Shown here in pieces: positions 710-23,425 of a stretch of 64,000 nt of DNA (position 1 is its first letter; each line of letters opens with the position of its first letter). A model generated the notes under the pieces. That model saw only the letters and a list, made by a program, of their open reading frames with translations. It did no database searches and had not been told where the DNA came from. Made by a program: the position numbers and the translations under genes. Origin of the DNA: Empedobacter sedimenti. GTDB taxonomy: Bacteria > Bacteroidota > Bacteroidia > Flavobacteriales > Weeksellaceae. The stretch is from NCBI RefSeq assembly GCF_030005555.1, contig NZ_JASCQG010000003.1:62001-126000 (forward strand), read 5' to 3'.

Positions 710-1426
710 ATGCTAAAATTATTATTGCTACTACTTCCTATTATCACTTTTTCTCAAGATGCGGTTCGTGTAGAATATGAAGTTCGTCAAGAATTTGATC
801 GAAGTAATTTAAATCAAACTTCTGCTAAAATGGAAGAAATGCTTGTCAACTCGGAGAATTTAAGATCTTATTATGAGTTATTTGTAAATTCTACAAATTC
901 AAATTTTGTAAAAATAGAACGTATTAATAATGACCAACGTCGTGGAACTGCTTTTGGCTTAAGTAGTAATGTGAGTTCTAATATTTACAAAGATTTTAAA
1001 TCGAAAGAATTATATGAAAATAGTCAAATGAATCCCAAACTATTTATCAAAGATTCTATTCAGACTTTTCCTTGGGTGTTAAGTAAAGAAGAATCAACAA
1101 TTTTGGGTTATAAAGTGAGAAAAGCAACTTATACAAATCCTACACAAACTGTAGAAGCATGGTATGCATCTGATTTACCATTTCGTGACGGCCCTTCTCG
1201 TTTCAATGGTTTACCTGGGTTGATTTTAAAAATTAAATTCAAATTACCATTTGTAAGTGACATGGATACAAATGTAAGTTTTACTGCAATTGATGTAAAA
1301 CCGTACACAGGAAAAATTGAATTACCAAATAAATCAAAGAAAGTAACCAAAGAAGAATATGACAAAGAAATGGAGAAAAAATCGAGTAAGTTTTCTGGAA
1401 TTTATTCTGGTGTAGAGAAAGATTAA
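710..1426 (+). CDS. GLPGLI family exported protein (tandem copy 1)
   Basis: A 238-residue protein of the GLPGLI family, which is found in Bacteroidota and has no established function. A signal peptide is visible (MLKLLLLLLPIITFSQ, cleavage near residue 16), so it should be exported to the periplasm. The family core is present: ILGYKVRKAT (131-140), the Trp of VEAWYASDLP (W151) and the signature GLPGLI (167-172). It is followed 34 nt later by a close paralogue (1460-2179) with the same C-terminal tail SGIYSGVEKD, so the two are almost certainly a duplication and probably co-transcribed. No lipobox or transmembrane segment is seen beyond the signal. Family assignment is firm; the role is unknown. 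Confidence 0.88.
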   Translation: MLKLLLLLLPIITFSQDAVRVEYEVRQEFDRSNLNQTSAKMEEMLVNSENLRSYYELFVNSTNSNFVKIERINNDQRRGTAFGLSSNVSSNIYKDFKSKELYENSQMNPKLFIKDSIQTFPWVLSKEESTILGYKVRKATYTNPTQTVEAWYASDLPFRDGPSRFNGLPGLILKIKFKLPFVSDMDTNVSFTAIDVKPYTGKIELPNKSKKVTKEEYDKEMEKKSSKFSGIYSGVEKD

Positions 1427-2556: not shown

Positions 2557-4684
2557 TAACGTTGATTTGAGTTGTAAATAAGCCGTAATTTACAAAAACA
2601 ATATCTTTCTTTAGCTTATCAATTGTCCCGACACTTGATGATCCATGTATTTTTACTCGGTCACCCACTTTTAATGCATCAATTTTCTTTTGAGTAGCCG
2701 CTTTTTCTTTCTTTTCGATAACTTCTTTTTGTTGAAAAATCGTTTCAGAATTTTCTTTTAATTCACGCTTTACTTCTTTCTCTACAATTTTTTCAATTTT
2801 CTTTAATTGCTGAACTTCTTTCGTTTTTTTCGAATTCTCCATTTCAATTAATTTCAAAAAATTAGCAATCATTTGCTTTTTATTCTTTGTTTTAAGATAA
2901 GAATCCGCCATATCCGAAATACGTTCTCCGAGCTTCAAACGTTTTTGTTCACGATCATATAATTGCTGAAAATCATATAGTTTTTGTTGAATTTTCTCGT
3001 TTGTTTGTTCTAATTTTTCATTATGTTCAATATTCGTTTCGCGCAATTCTTCAACATGATCTTTTGTCTTCTGAATTTCAAATTTTTCTTGTTGAAGTTT
3101 CAAAATCGTTTTGTCTAAACTAACTTTATCACTTTCAACCTTTTTCTTTGCACGATTAATCAAACGAAACGGAATTTTATTTTTTTCCGCAACCTCAAAT
3201 GTAAACGAACTTCCAGCTTGTCCAATTTCCAAACGATAAAGTGGCTCTAATGATTTTTTATCAAACAACATACATGCATTTATCGCTTCTGGTAAACTTT
3301 CTGCACTCAATTTGATGTTTGTGTAATGTGTTGTGAAAACACCGAACGAATTACGTTCATAAAATTCTTCAAAGAAAACTTCAGCCAATGCTCCACCCAA
3401 TTCAGGATCAGAACCTGTACCAAATTCATCAACTAACAACAAAGTTTTTTCGTCAGCATTCTTCAAGAAATACGACATCTGTTTTAGACGATAGCTGTAG
3501 GTTGATAAATGATTTTCGATAGATTGATTATCGCCAATATCTGTAAAAATTTGATTAAAGAAACCAAACTGACTTTCATCTTTTACTGGAACTAAAATTC
3601 CACTCTGAATCATAATTTGAAGTAAACCAATTGTTTTCAGTGTAATTGATTTTCCTCCAGCATTTGGACCAGAAATAATGATAATTCGACAATCTTCATT
3701 AATTTCTAAACTTTGCGGAATCGTTTTTTGTTCTTTTCGTTTATTGTTAAGATATAAAACAGGATGAAATGCATCAACTAATTTAATGATTCTATTTTCC
3801 GAAAGTTGTGGTAAAACTCCATTGATTAAAAAAGCATAATTTGCCTTAGCTTGCGTAAAATCGATGTATTCCAAAAATGTTTGATATTCTTCAAGATTTG
3901 GCTTGTATTCAGCAATTTGAGCTGTTAAATCCAACAAAATCTGAATAATCAAATGTTTTTCTTCTTCCTTCAATTCTTCCCATTCGCGACGAGGATTCTG
4001 AACACTTTCTGGCTCTATAAACGTAATTGATCCAGTTTTTGAAGTTCCTAAAAATTGTCCTTTAACACGTTTTCTCAAAGCAGACTTTACTGCCAAAACG
4101 CGACGATTACCGACAACAGATTCTCTGATATCATCTAAATAATCCGAATGATATGACATCGATTTATTGAACAATTCAGTGATTTTTCCATTCAAATGAC
4201 GTAAACGATCTCGTACAATTTTCAGTTCTGGACTTGCATCGTCTTTTATTTCTCCAAATTTATTGAACACTTGATCGATTAATTTAACGATATTCTTCTC
4301 GTATGTAACCGTTGACGCTTTTTCAAATAAAACAGGCGCATATTCGTTGAAAGTCGTCAGATATTTCAAGATTTCTTTTACCTGAAGCGCATTTGCCTTT
4401 ATTTTGAAGAACTCTTCTGCAGGTAAATAGTAATTTTCGATTTCTAATCGGCTTAGATTTTCATCTAAAATATAATATTCTGAAAAAGGAACACGATTTC
4501 CAGTTTCAAAACTTGTTAAAAATTCATTTGTAGTTTGAAGATCTTGAATTAATAATTCATAATTTTCGTATGGTTTTAAGTTGAAAATAAATTCTTCAAC
4601 CTTTTCTGTATAAGCAAATTCTGCGATTTCTTTCTGAATCGCATTAAATTCTAAATCTTTTAAAGTTTGTTCTGATATTTGCAT
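2537..4684 (-). CDS. mutS2: MutS2-type ATPase without Smr domain
   Basis: A 715-residue MutS2-family protein. The MutS core and clamp region is followed by the ABC-type ATPase with Walker A GPNAGGKS (339-346) and Walker B/signature LLLVDEFGTGSDPELGGAL. A long charged coiled coil comes next, then a short SH3/KOW-like end (KVGDRVKIHGSSSVGTI). In Firmicutes MutS2 the C-terminus carries an Smr nuclease domain; here the protein stops at NEVYKI and none is present. MutS2 proteins act on branched DNA or stalled ribosomes depending on lineage, so the precise role here is open. A promoter box ends 6 nt before the ATG, implying a nearly leaderless mRNA. The gene is divergent from ung. Confidence 0.9.
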   Translation of the reverse strand: MQISEQTLKDLEFNAIQKEIAEFAYTEKVEEFIFNLKPYENYELLIQDLQTTNEFLTSFETGNRVPFSEYYILDENLSRLEIENYYLPAEEFFKIKANALQVKEILKYLTTFNEYAPVLFEKASTVTYEKNIVKLIDQVFNKFGEIKDDASPELKIVRDRLRHLNGKITELFNKSMSYHSDYLDDIRESVVGNRRVLAVKSALRKRVKGQFLGTSKTGSITFIEPESVQNPRREWEELKEEEKHLIIQILLDLTAQIAEYKPNLEEYQTFLEYIDFTQAKANYAFLINGVLPQLSENRIIKLVDAFHPVLYLNNKRKEQKTIPQSLEINEDCRIIIISGPNAGGKSITLKTIGLLQIMIQSGILVPVKDESQFGFFNQIFTDIGDNQSIENHLSTYSYRLKQMSYFLKNADEKTLLLVDEFGTGSDPELGGALAEVFFEEFYERNSFGVFTTHYTNIKLSAESLPEAINACMLFDKKSLEPLYRLEIGQAGSSFTFEVAEKNKIPFRLINRAKKKVESDKVSLDKTILKLQQEKFEIQKTKDHVEELRETNIEHNEKLEQTNEKIQQKLYDFQQLYDREQKRLKLGERISDMADSYLKTKNKKQMIANFLKLIEMENSKKTKEVQQLKKIEKIVEKEVKRELKENSETIFQQKEVIEKKEKAATQKKIDALKVGDRVKIHGSSSVGTIDKLKKDIVFVNYGLFTTQINVNEVYKI

Positions 4685-4728: not shown

Positions 4729-5400
4729 ATGGATTTAGCATTAGATACTTCTTGGAAAGAAGTTTTAAAGAGTGAATTTGATGAAAATTATTTTAAAAAT
4801 TTGATTGAATTTGTGCAAAATGAATACAACACAAAGACAATTTATCCTCCACAATCAGAAATTTTTGCAGCATTTCATTATACAGATTTTGAAGATGTAA
4901 AAGTCGTTATTTTAGGACAAGATCCTTATCATGGAGAAGGTCAAGCAAATGGTTTATCTTTTTCTGTTGCAGACGGAGTAAAACTACCACCAAGTTTGCG
5001 TAATATTTACAAAGAATTGAATGATGATTTGGGAATAGAAATTTCAACTTCTGGTAATCTTGAAGCTTGGGCAAAACAAGGCGTTTTACTACTGAATGCC
5101 ACCTTAACTGTAGAAGCGACTAAAGCGGGTTCTCATCAAAAGAAAGGTTGGGAAAAGTTTACAGATGCTGTAATACAAAAACTATCTGACAAAAAAGAGA
5201 ACATAGTTTTTATACTATGGGGTGCTTACGCACAAAAGAAAGGTGCAAAAATTGATCGAACGAAACATTTAGTTATAGAAACTGCTCATCCTTCTCCATT
5301 AGGAGCTTACCGAGGTTTTTGGGGCAGTAAACCTTTTTCTACAACCAATCAATTTCTTGAATCAAAAAAAATTTCGGAGATTGATTGGCAGATACAATAA
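4729..5400 (+). CDS. ung: Uracil-DNA glycosylase (family 1)
   Basis: A 223-residue family 1 uracil-DNA glycosylase, which removes uracil from DNA as the first step of base-excision repair. The water-activating motif GQDPYHG (63-69, catalytic D65) and the DNA-intercalating motif HPSPLGAYRG near the C-terminus are both intact, and the length is normal for the family. It is divergent from mutS2, with 44 nt between the starts, and converges on the MerR-type gene with only 4 nt between stop codons and no obvious terminator. Confidence 0.97.
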   Translation: MDLALDTSWKEVLKSEFDENYFKNLIEFVQNEYNTKTIYPPQSEIFAAFHYTDFEDVKVVILGQDPYHGEGQANGLSFSVADGVKLPPSLRNIYKELNDDLGIEISTSGNLEAWAKQGVLLLNATLTVEATKAGSHQKKGWEKFTDAVIQKLSDKKENIVFILWGAYAQKKGAKIDRTKHLVIETAHPSPLGAYRGFWGSKPFSTTNQFLESKKISEIDWQIQ

Positions 5401-5404
5401 ATTA

Positions 5405-6307
5405 TCACATTACCATTACTCGATGTAGATAATCGTTAATTTCTTTCGGATTATTAACATTGATATAAGCTACTTCGTCTGTAATTTTCTCTTTCAATTT
5501 TTCATAAGTAGCAACAAAAATGGTAGCTTCAGGTAAATGTTTTTTAATTAAGATCAAATAATCTTTCAAAATATCAAGATCAGTTTGTTTACTTATATAG
5601 GTAAAAACATGAGTGATATTGATATTTTCTAAACATTCGTTAATGATGCTTAATTCTTGATTTTCGCCCAAATAAATACATTTTTCACTATTAGCTTTTA
5701 ACAAAAGATAAGTATACAACAATTCTATATCATGAAATTCTGTCTTTGGTAAAAATAACAACCATTTTCGATCTGCATTTTCGATAAACTGTGTTGACTT
5801 GATTAGATAGAATAAATGTTTTCTAATTAAGTTTTTAGAAAATGACTTGATTGATTCTTGAACTGTATGCATTTCAAGAATCTCTGACATTGTACTAATA
5901 AAAGGAAAAACTATTTCTAAACAACATTTTTGAATACCTTCTTTCTTGAAACAAATGGTAAGAATTGTATCAAAAAATTTTGAATCAAATGAAAAACAAG
6001 AGTAAATAAGTAAATGAATTAAAGGTTTATAATCTTTACTTTTTTGAAGATAATTCTGAATCTCAAACTCTGTTTTAATCTGTAATTCTTGTAATAAGTT
6101 TGTACTAAGCTTTTCTACAGTATACTTACTATTAGAATTAATTAAAAATGAAATAATAATTAATTTCTTTAAATCATCTTGATTAAAAATTGAGTTTCGA
6201 TCTATTTTTTCTTCTCTAAATATTTTAAATTTTTTATTCCATAAAACAATCATTTGTTCATCTAATCCAGAAAACTGAACTAAATTTTTAAGTGTGTAAC
6301 TATACAT
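5405..6307 (-). CDS. MerR-type regulator with degenerate B12-binding-like region
   Basis: A 300-residue protein laid out like CarH/LitR regulators: an N-terminal MerR-like winged helix (YSYTLKNLVQFSGLDEQMIVLWNKK), a helical middle and a C-terminal Rossmann-like domain. The C-terminal region keeps E-x-H (E190, H192) and CIYLG, resembling the E/D-x-H-x-x-G cobalamin signature, but the Gly is replaced. The helical-bundle W-x9-EH motif that caps adenosylcobalamin in CarH is not recognisable (ES at 151-152). It sits divergently beside the B12-dependent mutase icmF, which makes it a candidate regulator of that gene. Whether it binds cobalamin is uncertain. Divergence from typical MerR proteins is marked, so the call rests on architecture more than identity. 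Confidence 0.65.
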   Translation of the reverse strand: MYSYTLKNLVQFSGLDEQMIVLWNKKFKIFREEKIDRNSIFNQDDLKKLIIISFLINSNSKYTVEKLSTNLLQELQIKTEFEIQNYLQKSKDYKPLIHLLIYSCFSFDSKFFDTILTICFKKEGIQKCCLEIVFPFISTMSEILEMHTVQESIKSFSKNLIRKHLFYLIKSTQFIENADRKWLLFLPKTEFHDIELLYTYLLLKANSEKCIYLGENQELSIINECLENINITHVFTYISKQTDLDILKDYLILIKKHLPEATIFVATYEKLKEKITDEVAYINVNNPKEINDYLHRVMVM

Positions 6308-6493: not shown

Positions 6494-9400
6494 ATGTCAC
6501 AAATAACACAAGAAGAGAAAAAAGAAAAATTTGTACATCCTGTACAAGAAGTTTATCATCCAAAAAATAAAATTAGAATTGTTACTGCAGCAGCTCTATT
6601 TGATGGGCACGATGCCGCAATCAACATCATGCGCCGTATCATTCAATCAACTGGATGTGAGGTTATTCATTTAGGTCACGATAAGTCTGTTGAAGATGTA
6701 GTAAACACAGCTATTCAGGAAGATGCAAATGCAATTGCAATGACGTCTTACCAAGGTGGTCACAACGAATATTTCAAATATATGTACGATTTGCTTCAAG
6801 AAAAAGGAGCTGGTCATATCCGCATCGTTGGTGGTGGTGGTGGAGTAATTTTACCATCGGAAATCAAAGAATTGATGGATTACGGAATTACGCGTTTATA
6901 CTCTCCTGATGATGGTCGCGAATTGGGTTTACAAGGAATGATTAATGATATGGTGGAGAAAGCAGATTTTCCGACAGGATCATTAGAATTACCAGAAGGA
7001 AAAGATGTGTATCAATCATTACAAGATAAAGATATCACGACGATTGCACGATTAATTTCGTTGGCAGAAAACCGTGAAGAAGACTTTTTGAAAGCATTTG
7101 ATTTTGATAAAGTTGCTGATAAATCTGCGCCAGTTTTAGGAATAACAGGAACAGGTGGAGCAGGAAAATCGTCAATGGTTGACGAATTAGTACGTCGTTT
7201 CTTGATTGATTTTCCAGAAAAATCGATTGCTTTGGTTTCTGTCGATCCATCGAAAAAGAAAACAGGTGGCGCTTTGTTAGGAGATCGTATTCGTATGAAT
7301 TCGATTAATAATCCGCGCGTATATATGCGTTCATTGGCAACTCGTCAATCAAATTTAGCGTTATCGAAATATGTAGAGGAAGCAATTCAAGTATTGAAAG
7401 CGGCGAAATACGATTTGATTATTTTAGAAACTTCTGGAATTGGACAGTCTGATACCGAAATTTTAGATCATTCGGATGCTTCATTGTACATTATGACGCC
7501 AGAATTTGGTGCTGCAACGCAATTGGAAAAGATTGATATGTTAGATTTTGCTGATATTGTTGCGATTAACAAATTCGATAAACGTGGCGCTTTAGATGCA
7601 TTGCGCGATGTGAAAAAACAATACCAACGCAATCATAATCTTTGGGATGTAAACCCTGATGAAATGCCAGTTTTTGGTACGATTGCTTCTCAATTTAACG
7701 ATCCAGGAACTAATCAATTATACAAGTCAATCATTGATAAAGTGGTTGAGAAAGCAGGTGCTGATTTGAAATCTTCTTTTGAAATTACAAAAGAGATGTC
7801 AGAGAAAATCTTCGTGATTCCACCGTCAAGAACGCGTTATTTATCAGAGATTGCAGAAAATAATCGTGGATATGATGTTCGTGCAAATGCACAGAAAGAT
7901 GTTGCGCAAAAACTATATGGTTTCTTTAAAACAATTGAAACACTTTCTGGAAAAACGCCAACGATTTCTCAACACGGAATCGATATTTCTGGAACAGAAA
8001 ATGCTGATTTAGTTAAAGTTCTTTTAGCTGAATTTGACAAATTAAAAATGAATTTAGATCCTTTCAACTGGGAAGTAATCACGACTTGGGACGAAAAGGT
8101 AAATAAATATAAAAATCCGGTTTACACATTTAAAGTGCGTGATAAAGAAATAAAAATTCAGACACATTCTGAGTCTTTATCGCACTTACAAATCCCTAAA
8201 ATTGCGTTACCTAAGTACGAAGCTTGGGGCGATATTTTACGTTGGGTGTTGCAAGAAAATGTTCCAGGCGAGTTTCCATTTACTTCAGGATTGTATCCTT
8301 TCAAACGTGAAGGAGAAGATCCAACGCGTATGTTTGCGGGTGAAGGAGGTCCAGAGCGTACCAATCGTCGTTTCCATTATGTATCGAAAGGAATGCCTGC
8401 AAAACGTTTGTCTACAGCTTTTGACTCGGTAACTTTATATGGAAATGATCCAGGTCATCGTCCTGATATTTACGGAAAAATTGGTAATGCTGGAGTTTCG
8501 ATTTGTTGTTTAGATGATGCGAAGAAATTATATTCTGGTTTCGATTTATCGCATGCAGCAACTTCGGTTTCAATGACGATTAACGGGCCAGCGCCTATGT
8601 TATTAGGTTTCTTTATGAATGCCGCAATTGATCAAAATTGTGAAAAATACATCAAAGAAAATGGTTTAGAAGCTGAAATTGAAGCAAAAACCAAAGCTAT
8701 TTACGAAGATAAAGGTTTGGAAAGACCTCGTTACAATGGCGATTTACCAGAAGGAAATGATGGTTTAGGATTGATGCTTTTAGGTGTAACGGGAGATCAG
8801 GTTTTACCTGCTGATGTATATGCTGAAATCAAGAAAAATACCTTGGCGCAAGTTCGTGGAACGGTTCAGGCAGATATTTTGAAAGAAGATCAAGCTCAAA
8901 ATACATGTATTTTCTCAACTGAATTTGCGTTGCGTTTGATGGGTGATGTGCAAGAATATTTCATCAATCAAAATGTTCGTAATTTCTATTCAGTATCAAT
9001 TTCTGGTTACCATATTGCAGAGGCTGGTGCAAATCCTATTTCGCAGTTGGCGTTTACTTTGGCAAACGGATTTACGTATGTTGAGTATTATTTATCTCGT
9101 GGAATGGATATCAATGCATTTGGACCAAACTTATCGTTTTTCTTCTCAAATGGTATCGATCCAGAATATTCTGTAATTGGTCGTGTGGCGCGTAAAATTT
9201 GGGCAAAAGCCTTGAAAAATAAATACGGTGCTAATGAGCGTGCACAAATGTTGAAATATCATATTCAAACTTCTGGTCGTTCGTTACATGCGCAAGAAAT
9301 TGATTTTAATGATATTCGTACTACGTTACAAGCCTTATACGCAATTTACGATAACTGTAACTCATTACATACCAATGCGTATGATGAAGCGATTACAACA

Positions 9401-9955
9401 CCAACAGAAGAATCGGTTCGTCGTGCAATGGCTATCCAGTTGATTATCAATAAAGAATTAGGTTTAGCGAAAAATGAAAATCCAATTCAAGGTTCGTTCA
9501 TTATCGAAGAATTAACAGATTTGGTTGAAGAAGCTGTTTTACAAGAATTTGATCGTATTACTGAGCGTGGAGGCGTTTTAGGAGCGATGGAAACGATGTA
9601 TCAGCGTTCTAAAATTCAGGAAGAATCATTGTATTACGAAACTTTGAAGCATAACGGAACATTCCCAATTATTGGTGTAAATACATTCTTAAGTTCAAAA
9701 GGTTCGCCAACAGTGGTGCCTGCGGAAGTGATTCGTGCAACAGAGGAAGAAAAACAATTCCAAATTAAAACGAAAGAAAACCTAAATAAAATAAACGAAC
9801 AACAAGTTGAAAAAGCTTTAGAAAAAGCACAACAAGCAGCTGTTAACAATCAAAATATCTTTGAAGTGTTAATGGAAGCAACCAAAGTTTGTTCGTTAGG
9901 ACAAATTACTTCTGCCTTATTCGAAGTGGGCGGACAGTACCGTAGAAATATGTAA
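6494..9955 (+). CDS. icmF: Fused adenosylcobalamin-dependent acyl-CoA mutase, IcmF type
   Basis: A 1153-residue fusion with three parts in order: a B12-binding domain (DGHDAA, lower-ligand H39), a MeaB/ArgK-like P-loop GTPase chaperone (GTGGAGKS, 219-226) and the TIM-barrel mutase domain. This is the IcmF architecture, which interconverts isobutyryl-CoA and n-butyryl-CoA and carries its own G-protein chaperone. Two substrate-selecting residues support ICM rather than methylmalonyl-CoA mutase: the position of human MUT Y110 (RQYAG) is F614 (TRMFAG), and that of MUT R228 (VRNTY) is Q802 (AQNTC). The gene faces away from a MerR/B12-like regulator and ends at a strong terminator. Some IcmF enzymes also act on pivalyl- or isovaleryl-CoA, so the exact substrate is unproven. 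Confidence 0.92.
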
Positions 9956-10033: not shown

Positions 10034-11050
10034 ATGAAAGATTTCCTACTTAAAAAAGATATTCAAATTTCTGCTAAACGATATTTTATCGATGCAATGG
10101 GCGCAATGGCTTATGGTTTGTTTGCAACTTTATTGGTTGGTACAATTTTAAAAACAATTGGAGACGAGTTTAATATATCTTTTTTAACAAATATTGTTTG
10201 GCCAGTTGCGAATCAAGCCACAGGACCAGCAATAGCGTTGGCTATTGCGTATAGTTTACGAGCGCCGCAATTGGTGTTATTTTCATCTGCAGTTGTAGGA
10301 ATTGCAGCTTACAAATTAGGTGGACCTTTGGGCGTTTTTATAGCAACAATAGTTGCAGTAGAAGTAGGAAAAATGGCTGCGGGAGAAACACGCATCGATA
10401 TTGTCATTACACCAATTATTACTGTTTTGGTTGGAGTAATTTTAGCACAAATCATTGGTCCATCTGTACAACAAATGATGAAATGGATTGGTGAAATTAT
10501 TATGTTATCAACAGATTCAAACCCACTAATAATGGGAATTGTAATTGCTGTAATTGTCGGTATGGTTTTGACTTTACCTATTTCTTCTGCTGCTCTTTGT
10601 CTTATGTTAGAGTTAGATGGTTTAGCTGCTGGCGCTGCAACAATAGGTTGTTGTGCACAAATGATAGGTTTTGCAACAATTAGTTTCAGAGACAATGGTT
10701 TAAAAGGTGTTTTGGCACAAGGACTAGGTACAAGTATGTTACAAGTTCCGAATATTTTTAAAAATTGGAAAATTTGGATTCCACCGACGTTAGCTTCAGC
10801 GATTATTGCACCAATTGCAATTATTTATTTCAAGATGGAAAATACAGCTTTAGAATCCGGGATGGGTTCCTGTGGTTTAGTTGGACAAATAGGGACTTTC
10901 AATGCAATGAAATCTAAATATGATTCAACCTATATTTTAACCTCAATATTAATCTTACAAATCATTGCTCCAGCTGTAATTTCTTACATAATTTACTATT
11001 TTATGAGAAAGAAAAACTGGATAAAAGACGGTGATATGAAATTGGGTTAA
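10034..11050 (+). CDS. Orphan PTS EIIC-like membrane protein
   Basis: A 338-residue, very hydrophobic protein with about eight to ten transmembrane segments. Its sequence resembles the PTS_EIIC_2 family of sugar-permease-like proteins, with conserved loops such as ANQATGPAIALAIAYSLRAPQ and the Gly-rich segment ALESGMGSCGLVGQIGTFNAMKSKY. No EIIA, EIIB, HPr or EI gene is nearby, and flavobacteria generally lack a sugar PTS, so phosphotransfer-coupled uptake is unlikely. It follows icmF after a terminator, so it is probably transcribed on its own. The substrate is unknown. Confidence 0.75.
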   Translation: MKDFLLKKDIQISAKRYFIDAMGAMAYGLFATLLVGTILKTIGDEFNISFLTNIVWPVANQATGPAIALAIAYSLRAPQLVLFSSAVVGIAAYKLGGPLGVFIATIVAVEVGKMAAGETRIDIVITPIITVLVGVILAQIIGPSVQQMMKWIGEIIMLSTDSNPLIMGIVIAVIVGMVLTLPISSAALCLMLELDGLAAGAATIGCCAQMIGFATISFRDNGLKGVLAQGLGTSMLQVPNIFKNWKIWIPPTLASAIIAPIAIIYFKMENTALESGMGSCGLVGQIGTFNAMKSKYDSTYILTSILILQIIAPAVISYIIYYFMRKKNWIKDGDMKLG

Positions 11051-13444: not shown

Positions 13445-14197
13445 CTATTTAGTATCAACTCCTTGACTGTTCATTTCTTGTTGTTTTTTAAAAAAGGCTT
13501 CCATTTCAGCTTTATAGGTATTGAAATCAACTATTTTTCCTTTTTTGGGTTGGTTAATTGTTGTATTTTTCTTTGCTTCCTTTACAGACATCGCTTTGTA
13601 AGTGACAACCATATCAACTTTGTCATTTAATTTTCTTTCTAGTTCCAAAATCAAACCTGGTAATCCGCTATACTTATTTGGACCTGAGGGATAAGGTAAA
13701 GAAGATGCAAACCAAGCAGTTATTTCTTCTTTATTAACTTGAGCTGTTGCTTTACGAACATCAAATCCTAATACTTTTCTTCTATCTCTAGTAATTGTCC
13801 AATTAATTTTTGGAATAGAATCTTTTATAATTCGATCCATACCAAACCCTACAGATTCATGCATATAATAATTTTCATTCAAATTTTTATAATACAAACC
13901 ATTACCTTGTGTTGAACTGTAACTGTAGGAAGTACCTCCTGTTAAAGTTGATTTTTCGATGTAGTTTGATGCATTTTTATCTGTTGTTAAAATAAATGGA
14001 GTAGGAATTTTCATACGATCCGTAAAATAACGAATTGCTTCTTCCCTACTTAATTTGTGTCCATTCATTGTTACATTAAAACCTTCTGATTTATTTGCAT
14101 CATAAACAGTATACACATCATATTCTACTTCTAAAACATCTTGCGCATTTACAAAACAACACAGAAACATCACTAAAATTAATAAATATTTTTTCAT
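13445..14197 (-). CDS. GLPGLI family exported protein
   Basis: A 250-residue GLPGLI-family protein with signal peptide MKKYLLILVMFLCCFVNAQ. The core reads VLGFDVRKAT, EEITAWFASSLPYPSGPNKYSGLPGLILELE. It is the third of three adjacent GLPGLI genes on this strand, 8 nt behind the previous one, and precedes the DUF3472 gene. It ends NSQGVDTK, sharing the GVD-x tail with its neighbours. An exported protein of unknown function; the family call is firm. Confidence 0.87.
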   Translation of the reverse strand: MKKYLLILVMFLCCFVNAQDVLEVEYDVYTVYDANKSEGFNVTMNGHKLSREEAIRYFTDRMKIPTPFILTTDKNASNYIEKSTLTGGTSYSYSSTQGNGLYYKNLNENYYMHESVGFGMDRIIKDSIPKINWTITRDRRKVLGFDVRKATAQVNKEEITAWFASSLPYPSGPNKYSGLPGLILELERKLNDKVDMVVTYKAMSVKEAKKNTTINQPKKGKIVDFNTYKAEMEAFFKKQQEMNSQGVDTK

Positions 14198-14205
14198 ATC
14201 AACAA

Positions 14206-14949
14206 TTAATTTTTATCAACACCTTGTCCAAAAGCACTCATCATCTTCTTTCTTGATTCTTCTCTCAAAACTTTCAATTCCGCTTCTGTAATCACTTTAT
14301 TTGTTGATTCTTTTAGTTTTGTAAATCGTTTTGGATTTGTATTGATCTTAACAGCTTCATAAATTAATTTGGTTTCTAACTTACTTTTTAATTGTACAAT
14401 CGCTTTCAGAACCGTTCCTGGTAAACCATTTACTTGTGCAGGACCAACATTAGCCTTCATATCTGGAGCAAACCATGCTTCTACATTTTCCTTTTCAGAT
14501 ATTGCTTTTATTACTCTATGACCCAAAATTGTTGTTTCTTCGTCCGTAATATTCCATTGATAATCTTTAAAAGGATAATTGACTAAATAATTTACTCCGT
14601 CTAACTTAACCTCTTGTGTATATTTTTTGTTTGTTTGGTCACCAATCAAAGCTTTCGTTTCTCCACCAATAGAAATAGAAAAGGCTCCAGCCGAACCGTT
14701 TGCTTGATTATTATCTACTGTTTGTATACGATCAAAATTTGAAATTTCACCATTATATTCTAATTGATGATACAAATCCTTACCAGAACCAATTTTCATA
14801 AAACCTTTTCCGTTTTGCTTTTGCTCACGTTCAATCTCTTTTACTTTATCCTCATTAACTTCAGTTTTTTGTTTGTACTCGATTACAAATTTTTCTTGCG
14901 CAAAAAGATTTGTTGCAAAACATAAAGCAAATAGTAATACTTTTTTCAT
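14206..14949 (-). CDS. GLPGLI family exported protein (GLPGTV variant)
   Basis: A 247-residue protein with signal peptide MKKVLLFALCFATNLFAQ and the GLPGLI core ILGHRVIKAI, ENVEAWFAPDM and VNGLPGTVLKA, so the signature is GLPGTV here. It ends AFGQGVDKN, the conserved tail. It sits between two other GLPGLI genes, 8 nt and 33 nt away, consistent with one operon. The mature N-terminus is lysine- and glutamate-rich. Function is unknown. Confidence 0.86.
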   Translation of the reverse strand: MKKVLLFALCFATNLFAQEKFVIEYKQKTEVNEDKVKEIEREQKQNGKGFMKIGSGKDLYHQLEYNGEISNFDRIQTVDNNQANGSAGAFSISIGGETKALIGDQTNKKYTQEVKLDGVNYLVNYPFKDYQWNITDEETTILGHRVIKAISEKENVEAWFAPDMKANVGPAQVNGLPGTVLKAIVQLKSKLETKLIYEAVKINTNPKRFTKLKESTNKVITEAELKVLREESRKKMMSAFGQGVDKN

Positions 14950-14982: not shown

Positions 14983-15711
14983 TTATTGCGTATCAACTCC
15001 TTGATGTTGATTTTCGTTATTCTTTTCATACTCGATCTCTAACTTTTTGAAATCTTGTTTCGTGATTTCTTTGGCTTTAAATAATTTTTTAAATTCTAAA
15101 TTATCTTTCGTAATTACAGAAGTTGCTTTCATATAATAACTTGGTTCTGTTTTACCTTTCTGAAAACCTTCAATTTTAAGAACCAAACCAGGAAGATTGA
15201 TGTATTCTTTTGGTCCAAATCGTTTTGGCAAATCTGGAGCATACCAAATAATTGTCTTATTATCTTCATCATATTTTATGATTGCTTGTTTGACAGAAAA
15301 ACCTAAATAAGTAGCCTTTTCTTGTGTCAACTCATATTTAAAAGGAGAAGAAATTGTATCTGTAACAATAAATTTCTTGTGCTCTATTAACCATTCTTGT
15401 TTCTTCAAATTTTGATTAAAATCTATCAAAATATTATAAGGAATTACGCCAAGCATAATAACAGTATTCTCGCTTTGAGAATTATTAATCTTATCCAATT
15501 TCGTAAAAACACTTTGATTGTTCTTGATTTGTAAAACATAATTTTTAGGAACAGAAAGTGCAGCTAAAAAATCTCCCGAAAGCTTTTCTTCTTTTCCATC
15601 TTTACCTATAATACGAGGAATTGAAACTTCTTCGTATTCTATTTCAATCCCATGTTGCGCAAAACCTAAACTCGTAAAAAGCAAAAAACCAGAAAATAAT
15701 AAATGTTTCAT
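14983..15711 (-). CDS. GLPGLI-like exported protein (NLPGLV variant)
   Basis: A 242-residue protein with signal peptide MKHLLFSGFLLFTSLGFAQ. It aligns to GLPGLI proteins through YLGFSVKQAI, IIWYAPDLPKRFGPKEYINLPGLVLKI, the signature Gly being replaced by Asn (NLPGLV), and through its tail HQGVDTQ. It is the first gene of the leftward GLPGLI-DUF3472 cluster, so its upstream region (15712-15800) should hold the promoter, although I see no perfect TAnnTTTG box. Function is unknown. Confidence 0.83.
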   Translation of the reverse strand: MKHLLFSGFLLFTSLGFAQHGIEIEYEEVSIPRIIGKDGKEEKLSGDFLAALSVPKNYVLQIKNNQSVFTKLDKINNSQSENTVIMLGVIPYNILIDFNQNLKKQEWLIEHKKFIVTDTISSPFKYELTQEKATYLGFSVKQAIIKYDEDNKTIIWYAPDLPKRFGPKEYINLPGLVLKIEGFQKGKTEPSYYMKATSVITKDNLEFKKLFKAKEITKQDFKKLEIEYEKNNENQHQGVDTQ

Positions 15712-20901: not shown

Positions 20902-22578
20902 ATGAAATTGAAATCAATTCTACTAATCATTTTCTGTATTCAAGCTATTGTTCTTGATGCACAAGAAACTTATAAAATTACCTATGAACGATTTTCTAAC
21001 GGAAAGAAAGTAGAAGAAAATAATCCAATACAAGTTCTTGCTAATGCGAAAGAAACCGTTATTGGAAAGCAACAAAGCTTTAATCACACAACAAGTTATC
21101 CTGATGAAATGTTTTATTACACTAAAACAAATCCATCAATTATCTCGTTAATTACACAATTTGATTCGATAAATTCTATCATAACAAACGATTCTGTTGC
21201 TTTTAACAAATCTATTTTTACCATTTCTAAAGAAACAAAACGAATTTTAGGTTTACGTTGTAAAAAAGCTACAACAAATATCAATTCTAATACTGTGGAT
21301 GTTTGGTTTGTAGATAATATGGATTTAAACGCTTCGCCAACGATGGTTGGAATGAATTTGGGATTTGTTTTAGAAATTACACGAAATAATAATTCAACCA
21401 TTCGTGCTTCAAAAATTGAACGAGAAAAAGATTTGATTCCAAGTCAATTCATCCAGAAAGAATTACTTCAAAATCGAGTTGATTTGCTAACGTATAAAGA
21501 TATTATTTGGAAAAGTAAATTTGTTGACATCCCGTTACTAAACAATCAACAAATTAATTTTAGTAAAGATTTTTCGTCAAATGATTCTATTTATCGTTTT
21601 GCAAACGGAACAGTAGTAGTCAGAAAAATAAAATTACCATTAATAAAAAAAGGAAGTCAAATTTTCTTGAATGTTAAACAACAATCAAATGGAGATGCAT
21701 ATGATAGAACTGGTTCTGTTTTCTTGATTCAGAAAAATTCTGAACTAACGTTTATGGATGCTTTACAAAAAGGAGTCAATCAATTACCAATTTACACGAA
21801 TGGAAATGGCAAAAAATATCAAGGTTATTTTCCTACAGCACAATACAATCCAACTATTGAATTGATGAGATTCTTTACTCCTTTCGGAATTAACAAATTC
21901 AATCATATTCAATTAAAAAATCAAACATGGGAAACTGAAGCAAAATATCGTCAGGAAATATCTGAATTTCAATCTATTTTATCTAATCAAGAAGTTTTAA
22001 TTGGTTTCTTTATCGGAAATTATGATCAAGGTGGACATACCATCTCTGCAAATATCACTGTACATCCTTCGGGAGAATCTACTTTGCCGAATCAAAAAAT
22101 ATTACCTTTATTTAATACAGTCAATGTCATGGAAATGGCAGGACAAGAATATCCTTCTTTATTTGATGATCCTAACGGATTTACAGTAGAATTTACTCTA
22201 AAAGAGGATTACAATAATGCTAAACTACGTTTTACAACAACTGGACATGGTGGGTGGGAAAATGGAGATGAATTTGTTCCGAAAGAAAACACTATATTTG
22301 TTGATAATCAAAAGGTTTTTAGCACAATTCCTTGGCGTCAAGATTGTGGTTCTTACAGAGCATACAATCCGGCATCAGGAAACTTTGACAATGGCTTATC
22401 TTCTTCGGATTATAGCCGTTCTAATTGGTGTCCTGGTACTATTACTAATCCTTACTTTATACAATTAGGCGATTTAAAAGCCGGAAAACACACTATAAGA
22501 GTAAGTATACCTCAAGGAAAACCAGAAGGAAACAGCTTTAGTTATTGGAACGTTTCTGGTGTTCTTTTAGCAAAATAA
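20902..22578 (+). CDS. PNGase F-like N-glycanase with GLPGLI-like N-terminal domain
   Basis: A 558-residue exported protein (signal MKLKSILLIIFCIQAIVLDA). Residues about 22-170 align to GLPGLI proteins: ILGLRCKKAT (115-124), VDVWFVDNMD (W135) and GMNLGFVLEI (150-159) in place of GLPGLILKI. Residues about 215-558 resemble the two jelly-roll domains of PNGase F, which cleaves N-glycans from asparagine. D268 in DAYDR matches PNGase F catalytic D60 (DEWDR), E457 in NGDEF matches E206 (CAEWC), and C482 and C510 (DCGS, NWCPG) match a PNGase F disulfide. The length resembles the PNGF-II subgroup, which also has an extra N-terminal domain. Deglycosylating activity is inferred, not shown. Confidence 0.82.
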   Translation: MKLKSILLIIFCIQAIVLDAQETYKITYERFSNGKKVEENNPIQVLANAKETVIGKQQSFNHTTSYPDEMFYYTKTNPSIISLITQFDSINSIITNDSVAFNKSIFTISKETKRILGLRCKKATTNINSNTVDVWFVDNMDLNASPTMVGMNLGFVLEITRNNNSTIRASKIEREKDLIPSQFIQKELLQNRVDLLTYKDIIWKSKFVDIPLLNNQQINFSKDFSSNDSIYRFANGTVVVRKIKLPLIKKGSQIFLNVKQQSNGDAYDRTGSVFLIQKNSELTFMDALQKGVNQLPIYTNGNGKKYQGYFPTAQYNPTIELMRFFTPFGINKFNHIQLKNQTWETEAKYRQEISEFQSILSNQEVLIGFFIGNYDQGGHTISANITVHPSGESTLPNQKILPLFNTVNVMEMAGQEYPSLFDDPNGFTVEFTLKEDYNNAKLRFTTTGHGGWENGDEFVPKENTIFVDNQKVFSTIPWRQDCGSYRAYNPASGNFDNGLSSSDYSRSNWCPGTITNPYFIQLGDLKAGKHTIRVSIPQGKPEGNSFSYWNVSGVLLAK

Positions 22579-22669: not shown

Positions 22670-23425
22670 ATGGAATATAATACACTACGTACACAATTAA
22701 TCATTCCAGAATATGGTCGTCATATTCAAGAAATGGTTGATCACTGTAAAACAATCACAGATGATACTGAACGCAATGGTTTTGCCGAAATTATTATCGA
22801 AGTTATGGGCGAATTAAATCCTCACTTACGGGATGTTCCTGACTTTCAACACAAACTTTGGGATCAGTTATTTATCATGGCAGAATTTGATTTGGATGTA
22901 AAATCTCCCTATCCAATTCCAACAAAAAAAGATACAGTAAATAGTAAACCAAACAAGGTAGAATATCCAAAAAGTATTTATAAATACAGATATTACGGTA
23001 ATAACATTCGCAAAATGATTGATGTTGCTGTAACTTGGGAAGAAGGCGAAAAACGTGAAGGTTTATACTTTGCTATAGCTAATCACATGAAGAAATGTTA
23101 TTTGCTTTGGAACAAGGATACGGTTGATGATCAAGTTATTTTTGATCACTTGTACGAACTTTCTGATGGTAAAATAGATTTACGTAAAGTTGACGATCAA
23201 TTGGTTTCTCCAGATCGTTTGAATAACAATAACAATCATTCAAACAATCATCAAAATAACAACAATCGCAACCAGAACAATACCCGTTCTTACAACAATA
23301 ACAACCAAAATTCGAATCGAAATAACAATCAGAATTCGAATAATAGAAATAACAACAATAACCGAAACAATAATAACCAGAATAATAATCATCGTAACCA
23401 AAACGTTCGAAACAATAAAGGTTAA
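22670..23425 (+). CDS. DUF4290 protein with Asn-rich tail
   Basis: A 251-residue cytoplasmic protein. Residues 1-180 form a DUF4290 domain (MEYNTLRTQLIIPEYGRHIQ, WDQLFIMAEFDLDVKSPYP, YRYYGNNIRKMIDVA), a Bacteroidota family without known function. From about residue 184 the chain turns into a disordered tail made almost only of Asn, Arg, Gln and His, positively charged and without acidic residues. It starts an operon with murA (24 nt) and dedA. The linkage to murA suggests a role related to envelope growth, but that is inference from position. Confidence 0.85.
   Translation: MEYNTLRTQLIIPEYGRHIQEMVDHCKTITDDTERNGFAEIIIEVMGELNPHLRDVPDFQHKLWDQLFIMAEFDLDVKSPYPIPTKKDTVNSKPNKVEYPKSIYKYRYYGNNIRKMIDVAVTWEEGEKREGLYFAIANHMKKCYLLWNKDTVDDQVIFDHLYELSDGKIDLRKVDDQLVSPDRLNNNNNHSNNHQNNNNRNQNNTRSYNNNNQNSNRNNNQNSNNRNNNNNRNNNNQNNNHRNQNVRNNKG

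What the first reader, a model, noticed from the sequence alone, without database searches (positions are those of the whole stretch)
20902..22578. GLPGLI-like domain fused to a PNGase F-like amidase
Seen: residues 115-160 follow the GLPGLI-family core step by step (ILGLRCKKAT versus ILGYKVRKAT, VDVWFVDNMD versus VEAWYASDLP, GMNLGFVLEI versus GLPGLILKI). Residues about 215-558 carry PNGase F landmarks: D268 for D60, E457 for E206, and the C482/C510 pair. The long PNGase subgroup (PNGF-II) has an extra N-terminal domain. If that domain is a GLPGLI fold, the orphan GLPGLI family gains a structural anchor, and possibly a link to glycoprotein recognition, since five stand-alone GLPGLI genes lie within 20 kb.
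Basis: partly seen in the sequence, partly recalled or inferred. Interest (0 to 1): 0.72.

Follow-up and report, generated by a model that had tools for sequence, protein, structure and literature searches.

The report
Sugar-removing enzyme carrying a GLPGLI domain
This gene makes a recognisable enzyme that cuts sugar chains off proteins, and its extra front part, published as having a unique structure, turns out to be a relative of GLPGLI, a very common bacterial protein family of unknown function, so solved crystal structures of the enzyme already show what that family looks like.

Summary
Both halves of the observation hold. The 558-aa protein is a type II peptide-N-glycanase (PNGF-II kind; genus Empedobacter). 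Pfam assigns residues 26-200, 210-387 and 416-555 to PNGase_F-II_N, N-glycanase_N and N-glycanase_C. D268, E457 and C482/C510 align with PNGase F D60, E206 and C231/C252. The E118 position is Gly in all 28 relatives, the type II signature.

The N-terminal domain is a diverged GLPGLI domain. Profile-profile comparison gives 98.9%, E=1.2e-17, with controls at 0.41% or less. A profile of stand-alone GLPGLI proteins finds only PNGF-II and 7ZGN in the whole PDB. A stand-alone GLPGLI model superposes best on the PNGF-II domain (Z 14.2). A 2022 paper calls this domain unique (PMC9522356); database labels already contain the link implicitly.

Beyond the finding: both models next match the LolA/RseB/VioE half-barrel class (Z about 5-9), suggesting a LolA-like bowl; there is no sequence support.

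The glycoprotein-recognition link is not supported. The domain is reported dispensable for activity and specificity, and proximity to GLPGLI genes is local synteny.

The protein is a new member of a known kind; the homology is what matters.

The parts
20902..22578 (+). type II peptide-N-glycanase (PNGF-II-like), 558 aa, N-terminal signal peptide then GLPGLI/NBL domain then catalytic domain
   Evidence: Pfam PF22252 + PF09112 + PF09113; PDB 4r4z E=4.6e-175
20902..20961 (+). probable type I signal peptide (residues 1-20, ...IVLDA)
   Evidence: read directly from the translation; same shape in relatives; not run through a predictor
20962..21507 (+). N-terminal bowl-like (NBL) domain = diverged GLPGLI domain (about residues 21-202); the core with the ILGLRCKKAT / VDVWF / GMNLGFVLEI steps is residues 112-160 (21235-21381)
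   Evidence: PF22252 26-200; TIGR01200 48-181; hhalign E 1.2e-17
21529..22566 (+). catalytic domain, two N-glycanase sub-domains (residues 210-555)
   Evidence: PF09112 6.3e-62, PF09113 2.9e-54
21703..21705 (+). D268, equivalent of PNGase F catalytic D60
   Evidence: alignment with PNGase F orthologues, invariant in 28 relatives
22015..22017 (+). G372, at the place of PNGase F E118; glycine is the type II signature that leaves room for core alpha1,3-fucose
   Evidence: alignment; meaning from PMC9522356
22270..22272 (+). E457, equivalent of PNGase F E206
22345..22431 (+). C482 and C510 (first and last codon of this stretch), equivalent of the C231-C252 disulfide of PNGase F
710..1426 (+). stand-alone GLPGLI protein, 238 aa
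   Evidence: TIGR01200 5.9e-43; PF09697 and PF22252
1460..2179 (+). stand-alone GLPGLI protein, 239 aa (modelled)
   Evidence: TIGR01200 2.7e-40; model m3cd183084142
13445..14197 (-). stand-alone GLPGLI protein, 250 aa
   Evidence: TIGR01200 3e-38; PF22252 6.1e-12
14206..14949 (-). stand-alone GLPGLI protein, 247 aa
   Evidence: TIGR01200 8.9e-26
14983..15711 (-). stand-alone GLPGLI protein, 242 aa
   Evidence: TIGR01200 6.1e-24

Best explanation
The protein is an exported type II peptide-N-glycanase. Its C-terminal two thirds hydrolyse the bond between asparagine and the first GlcNAc of an N-glycan, with D268 and E457 in the places of PNGase F D60 and E206. Gly372, in the place of E118, should leave room for a core alpha1,3-fucose (plant and insect type). 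Its N-terminal domain is a GLPGLI domain that was fused to the enzyme once. The shared fold of NBL and stand-alone GLPGLI proteins is most probably a LolA/RseB-like half-barrel, a bowl open on one side. Shown here: domain make-up, homology of NBL and GLPGLI, conservation of catalytic positions, single origin of the fused form. Probable (about 0.75): the LolA-like fold class. Inferred only (about 0.4): the bowl is a non-catalytic accessory that holds a hydrophobic or extended ligand (a peptide tail of the glycopeptide, a lipid, or a partner protein) and so keeps or places the enzyme in the envelope. It is not needed for bond cleavage. The confidence below is for identity, homology and enzyme class, not for the role of the bowl.
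For: Pfam domains. 4r4z PNGF-II E=4.6e-175 over residues 22-557. Catalytic positions. NBL-GLPGLI homology by four routes: TIGR01200 on the PNGase and on orthologues above cut-off; PF22252 on stand-alone GLPGLI proteins, above gathering score; hhalign E 1.2e-17 with clean controls; a stand-alone-only profile that finds nothing in the PDB but 4r4x, 4r4z and 7zgn. Structure: a stand-alone GLPGLI model built without any PNGase in its alignment has 4r4z, 4r4x and 7zgn as best matches (Foldseek E about 2e-6 to 1.4e-5; Z 14.2, 11.8, 11.5). They are followed by VioE 8.9, RseB 8.5, MucB 8.3, EPD-BCP1 8.1 and LolA 7.5; Foldseek E for LolA is 1.7e-4. A separate, weaker model of the NBL domain gives the same order. 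Fused form monophyletic, 31 of 31, support 0.999. NBL dispensable for activity: PMC9522356.
Against: No enzymatic data for this protein. Model confidence is modest (pLDDT 61 for stand-alone GLPGLI; 51 for NBL), and AlphaFold2 was presumably trained on data that include 4R4X. LolA-like Z values of 7-9 lie close to what the aligner gives for unrelated models, and there is no sequence-profile similarity to LolA beyond the signal peptide. The GLPGLI motif itself has drifted in the PNGase (GMNLGFVLE), and this protein misses the TIGR01200 cut-off by 9 bits. No ligand of any GLPGLI protein is known to me.
Confidence: 0.85

Rival explanations
1. The GLPGLI domain is a glycoprotein- or glycan-recognition module that steers the enzyme to its substrate, and the stand-alone GLPGLI proteins do related recognition work.
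For: It is fused to a glycan-releasing enzyme in every type II PNGase found here. An accessory domain on a glycan enzyme is often a binding module (general knowledge).
Against: PMC9522356 reports that removing the domain did not change activity or specificity of the Elizabethkingia enzyme. GLPGLI genes occur 11-40 times per genome, mostly far from any PNGase. Nearness to the PNGase is genus-level synteny. The closest folds are LolA, RseB and VioE, not lectins or carbohydrate-binding modules.
Confidence: 0.12
2. The domain is a docking piece for an outer-membrane receptor: GLPGLI proteins partner with TonB-linked beta-barrels of the CarboxypepD_reg type, and the PNGase is kept near the receptor that imports glycopeptides.
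For: In six complete genomes 6 of 85 GLPGLI loci have a CarbopepD_reg_2 receptor gene within 1 kb, all on the same strand, against about 1 expected and at most 5 in 500 rotations. Two further cases in the own genome, one on the same strand (C44) and one divergent (C43).
Against: Most loci have no such neighbour, and the PNGase gene has none: its neighbours are an acyl-CoA dehydrogenase and a DUF4290 gene.
Confidence: 0.15
3. The domain is a folding or export aid (intramolecular chaperone) for the enzyme, without ligand.
For: It sits between signal peptide and catalytic domain and is dispensable once the enzyme is made (PMC9522356).
Against: The catalytic domain alone was expressed and active, and type I PNGases do without it (PMC9522356). 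The domain is kept in the solved enzymes.
Confidence: 0.18
4. NBL and GLPGLI are unrelated half-barrels that look alike by convergence.
For: Identity is only about 17-28% and the GLPGLI motif is not kept in NBL.
Against: Significant matches in both directions with curated models and clean controls, plus best structural match.
Confidence: 0.02

Closest known systems
PNGF-II (type II PNGase) of Elizabethkingia meningoseptica, PDB 4R4X/4R4Z
   Same: Full-length match residues 22-557, E=4.6e-175, same three domains, same active-site residues, glycine at the E118 place
   Different: Only about half the residues are identical (aligned relatives from other genera of the family are about 49-53% identical); activity of this protein untested
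B. massiliensis PNGase B035DRAFT_03341, PDB 7ZGN, labelled 'Glpgli family protein'
   Same: Same architecture, E=1.1e-121; group 2 enzyme active on plant/insect N-glycans (PMC9522356)
   Different: From a Bacteroides; narrower specificity reported than for the Elizabethkingia enzyme
GLPGLI family, TIGR01200 / Pfam PF09697 (Porph_ging)
   Same: N-terminal domain is homologous
   Different: Stand-alone members are mostly 240-330 aa, keep the GLPGLI motif and have no attached enzyme; their function is unknown
LolA / RseB / MucB / VioE / LppX half-barrel class
   Same: Next-best structural matches of both models after the PNGF-II domain
   Different: No sequence-profile similarity; Z about 5-9 only; no lipid or lipoprotein binding shown

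Membership tests
PNGase F family, type II (PNGF-II) | both N-glycanase sub-domains (PF09112, PF09113) | tested here: met
   6.3e-62 and 2.9e-54, far above gathering scores
PNGase F family, type II (PNGF-II) | catalytic D60 and E206 equivalents | tested here: met
   D268 and E457, invariant in 28 relatives
PNGase F family, type II (PNGF-II) | glycine in place of E118 | tested here: met
   G372, glycine in all 28 relatives; criterion from PMC9522356
PNGase F family, type II (PNGF-II) | N-terminal bowl-like domain (PF22252) | tested here: met
   residues 26-200, 1.4e-49
PNGase F family, type II (PNGF-II) | N-glycan release including core alpha1,3-fucosylated glycans | not testable with these tools
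   needs an enzyme assay
GLPGLI family (TIGR01200) | score at or above NCBI's cut-off of 50 bits | tested here: not met
   41.1 bits for this protein; two orthologues in other genera reach 66.7 and 65.9 bits, so it is filed as a homologous, diverged domain, not as a family member by the curated rule
GLPGLI family (TIGR01200) | significant homology over the family core | tested here: met
   E 1.7e-10; hhalign 98.9%, 1.2e-17 with clean controls
GLPGLI family (TIGR01200) | GLPGLI motif | tested here: not met
   the aligned stretch reads GMNLGFVLE
GLPGLI family (TIGR01200) | fold of stand-alone members equals the N-terminal domain of PNGF-II | tested here: met
   best match Z 14.2, 128 residues, 3.5 A, from a model of modest confidence
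LolA-like half-barrel class | structural match standing clear of background | tested here: inconclusive
   Z 7-9 for the GLPGLI model and Foldseek E 1.7e-4; nearly all top rows after PNGF-II are of this class, but Z is near the aligner's stated background
LolA-like half-barrel class | sequence-profile similarity to LolA (PF03548) outside the signal peptide | tested here: not met

The most novel reading that the evidence does not exclude
GLPGLI proteins, present in 11-40 copies in each of six genomes of the family examined here and in 22 places in this one, are an expanded family of LolA/RseB-like periplasmic bowls that carry or sense hydrophobic cargo (lipids, lipoproteins or peptides). Type II PNGases borrowed one such bowl once, to handle glycopeptide substrates or to stay in the envelope.
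Probability: 0.35. Interest if true: 0.75.

Novelty: new member of a known kind. Interest (0 to 1): 0.5.

Why it matters
GLPGLI is a very common family of unknown function in Bacteroidota. Only three papers in the searched library even name it, two of them listing members in two-component regulons. The homology with the PNGF-II N-terminal domain means three PDB entries already show its fold, while the literature calls that domain unique and of unknown function. The LolA-like reading, if right, turns an orphan family into one with a testable idea: bind and carry a hydrophobic ligand. It also gives the puzzling, dispensable N-terminal domain of a biotechnologically useful enzyme type a family and an origin. 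The gene itself is an ordinary type II PNGase.

Tried and rejected
Sequence link between GLPGLI or NBL and LolA: hhalign aligned only the signal peptide (76%, 19 columns) or nothing; rejected as sequence evidence. Structure of the NBL domain predicted on its own with stand-alone GLPGLI rows: pLDDT 51, used only as a weak second look. More relatives for modelling: an alignment of five paralogues had no usable pattern, a two-paralogue query found one Empedobacter tilapiae locus, and IMG/VR scans with three proteins found nothing. A conserved operon around the PNGase: none; the neighbours acyl-CoA dehydrogenase and, in part, DUF4290 are kept within the genus and were not found beside the PNGase in the other genera tested with the same flank. 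Functional linkage of PNGase and GLPGLI genes: rejected, synteny inside one genus only. The 2015 PNGF-II paper is not held, so its statements are taken from PMC9522356. Whether Pfam already puts PF22252 and PF09697 in one clan could not be checked. The PNGF-II numbering G380/E418 quoted in PMC9522356 fits this protein's G372/E411 only to within one residue, so E411 as the E418 equivalent is likely but not certain.

Full report
What was checked. The ORF at 20902-22578 (+) is 558 codons long and starts with what looks like a signal peptide. Pfam finds three families end to end: PNGase_F-II_N (residues 26-200, 1.4e-49), N-glycanase_N (210-387, 6.3e-62) and N-glycanase_C (416-555, 2.9e-54). The best solved relatives are PNGF-II of Elizabethkingia (4r4z, E=4.6e-175 over residues 22-557) and the Bacteroides massiliensis PNGase 7ZGN (1.1e-121), whose deposited molecule name is 'Glpgli family protein'. 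The genome most probably belongs to the genus Empedobacter, judged from the one named relative of the neighbouring GLPGLI genes (Empedobacter tilapiae, 67% identical).

Active site. PNGase F orthologues were taken from genomes of another genus of the family (L071-L074, 354 aa) and aligned with 28 type II enzymes. PNGase F D60 falls on D268, E206 on E457, C231 and C252 on C482 and C510; all are invariant. E118 of PNGase F falls on G372, glycine in all 28. PMC9522356 describes that glycine as the feature that lets type II enzymes accept a core alpha1,3-fucose. Activity itself was not testable here.

Is the N-terminal domain a GLPGLI domain? Yes, by independent routes. TIGR01200 hits residues 48-181 at 1.7e-10, 41.1 bits, below NCBI's cut-off of 50. 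PNGases of two other genera score 66.7 and 65.9 bits, above it. In the other direction, three of the five stand-alone GLPGLI proteins of the window score above the gathering threshold of PF22252, the PNGase N-terminal model. In whole genomes of the family and phylum the PF22252 hits fall into two size classes: open frames of about 555-616 aa (fused PNGases) and mostly 240-330 aa (stand-alone GLPGLI). A profile made from the five stand-alone proteins only, run against the whole PDB, returns three sequences: 4r4x and 4r4z (about 7e-12) and 7zgn (1.3e-4). Profile-profile comparison gives 98.9%, E 1.2e-17; the catalytic domain, a reversed profile and five column shuffles give at most 0.41%. The motif that names the family has drifted in the PNGase to GMNLGFVLE, which probably explains the missed cut-off.

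Structure. A model of the stand-alone protein 1460-2179, made with GLPGLI sequences only (mean pLDDT 61, best in residues 121-200), has the PNGF-II and 7ZGN N-terminal domains as its first matches by Foldseek (E 2.2e-6 to 1.4e-5) and VIA-align (Z 14.2 with 128 residues at 3.5 A, 11.8, 11.5). The following rows are nearly all one fold class: VioE 8.9, RseB 8.5, MucB 8.3, EPD-BCP1 8.1, LolA of Porphyromonas gingivalis 7.5; Foldseek gives LolA 1.7e-4. A weaker model of the NBL domain itself repeats the order: PNGF-II 10.9, 7ZGN 8.4, RseB 8.1, VioE 6.9, LolA 5.9. So NBL/GLPGLI is most probably a LolA/RseB-like half-barrel. This is a fold statement only. The Z values are near the aligner's stated background, the models are of modest confidence, AlphaFold2 has presumably seen 4R4X, and there is no sequence-profile support.

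Origin and surroundings. All 31 NBL domains form one clade (support 0.999) on a long branch among the GLPGLI proteins, so one fusion is enough. The PNGase sits between an acyl-CoA dehydrogenase gene and a DUF4290 gene in this genus, with no glycan-use genes directly beside it. GLPGLI genes are everywhere in the genome (22 matches), and there are 11-40 matches per genome in six others. Their nearness to the PNGase is kept within the genus (about 5-20 kb) but not in the complete genomes G060 and G062. A modest excess of GLPGLI loci next to CarboxypepD_reg-type receptor genes was seen: 6 of 85 loci, all same strand, about 1 expected, plus two loci in the own genome. That is a lead, not a rule.

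How it works. Shown: architecture, catalytic positions, homology. Taken from the literature: type II chemistry and dispensability of the N-terminal domain for activity and specificity (PMC9522356, citing the 2015 PNGF-II paper). Probable: LolA-like bowl. Inferred: the bowl is an accessory that holds a ligand or partner and is not part of the catalytic step. The glycoprotein-recognition reading is not excluded for native substrates, but nothing here favours it.

What is known and what is new. The protein is a new member of the type II PNGases. The NBL-GLPGLI link is already latent in database labels (7ZGN's name; PF22252 hitting GLPGLI proteins) but is absent from the papers that could be searched. 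Three papers hold the word GLPGLI, none about PNGases, and PMC9522356 states that the NBL fold is unique to the two PNGases. The LolA-like assignment was not found stated in the searched library either, though that search was narrow.

Noticed in passing
L119:825-2180 (-), genome G018: A 452-aa open frame with two GLPGLI domains in tandem, each with its own motif (GLPGLIL, GLPGIIL); a second kind of GLPGLI fusion.
   Followed up: partly
L113:4041-4799 and 4805-5536 (-), own genome contig C44: Two adjacent exported proteins of about 250 aa with no Pfam family; one scores only 24 bits with TIGR01200, the other nothing. Possibly very diverged GLPGLI-type proteins.
   Followed up: partly
L011 (own genome C23:164908-165561): A GLPGLI gene interrupted by one TAG stop inside a cluster of three; in L061 the GLPGLI frame at 3596-4099 is also cut short. 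Turnover of paralogues seems common.
   Followed up: no
L105:1961-4573, L108:9163-11850 and six loci in other genomes: GLPGLI genes directly beside CarboxypepD_reg outer-membrane barrel genes: 6 of 85 loci within 1 kb against about 1 expected.
   Followed up: partly
22670-23425 (+): DUF4290 protein with a long asparagine/glutamine/arginine-rich C-terminal tail.
   Followed up: no
10034-11050 (+): A lone PTS EIIC-type membrane protein (PF13303, 3.5e-92); no partner components were seen among the neighbouring genes annotated here.
   Followed up: no
6494-9955 (+): A 1153-aa fusion of B12-binding domain, MeaB-type GTPase and acyl-CoA mutase (IcmF-like).
   Followed up: no
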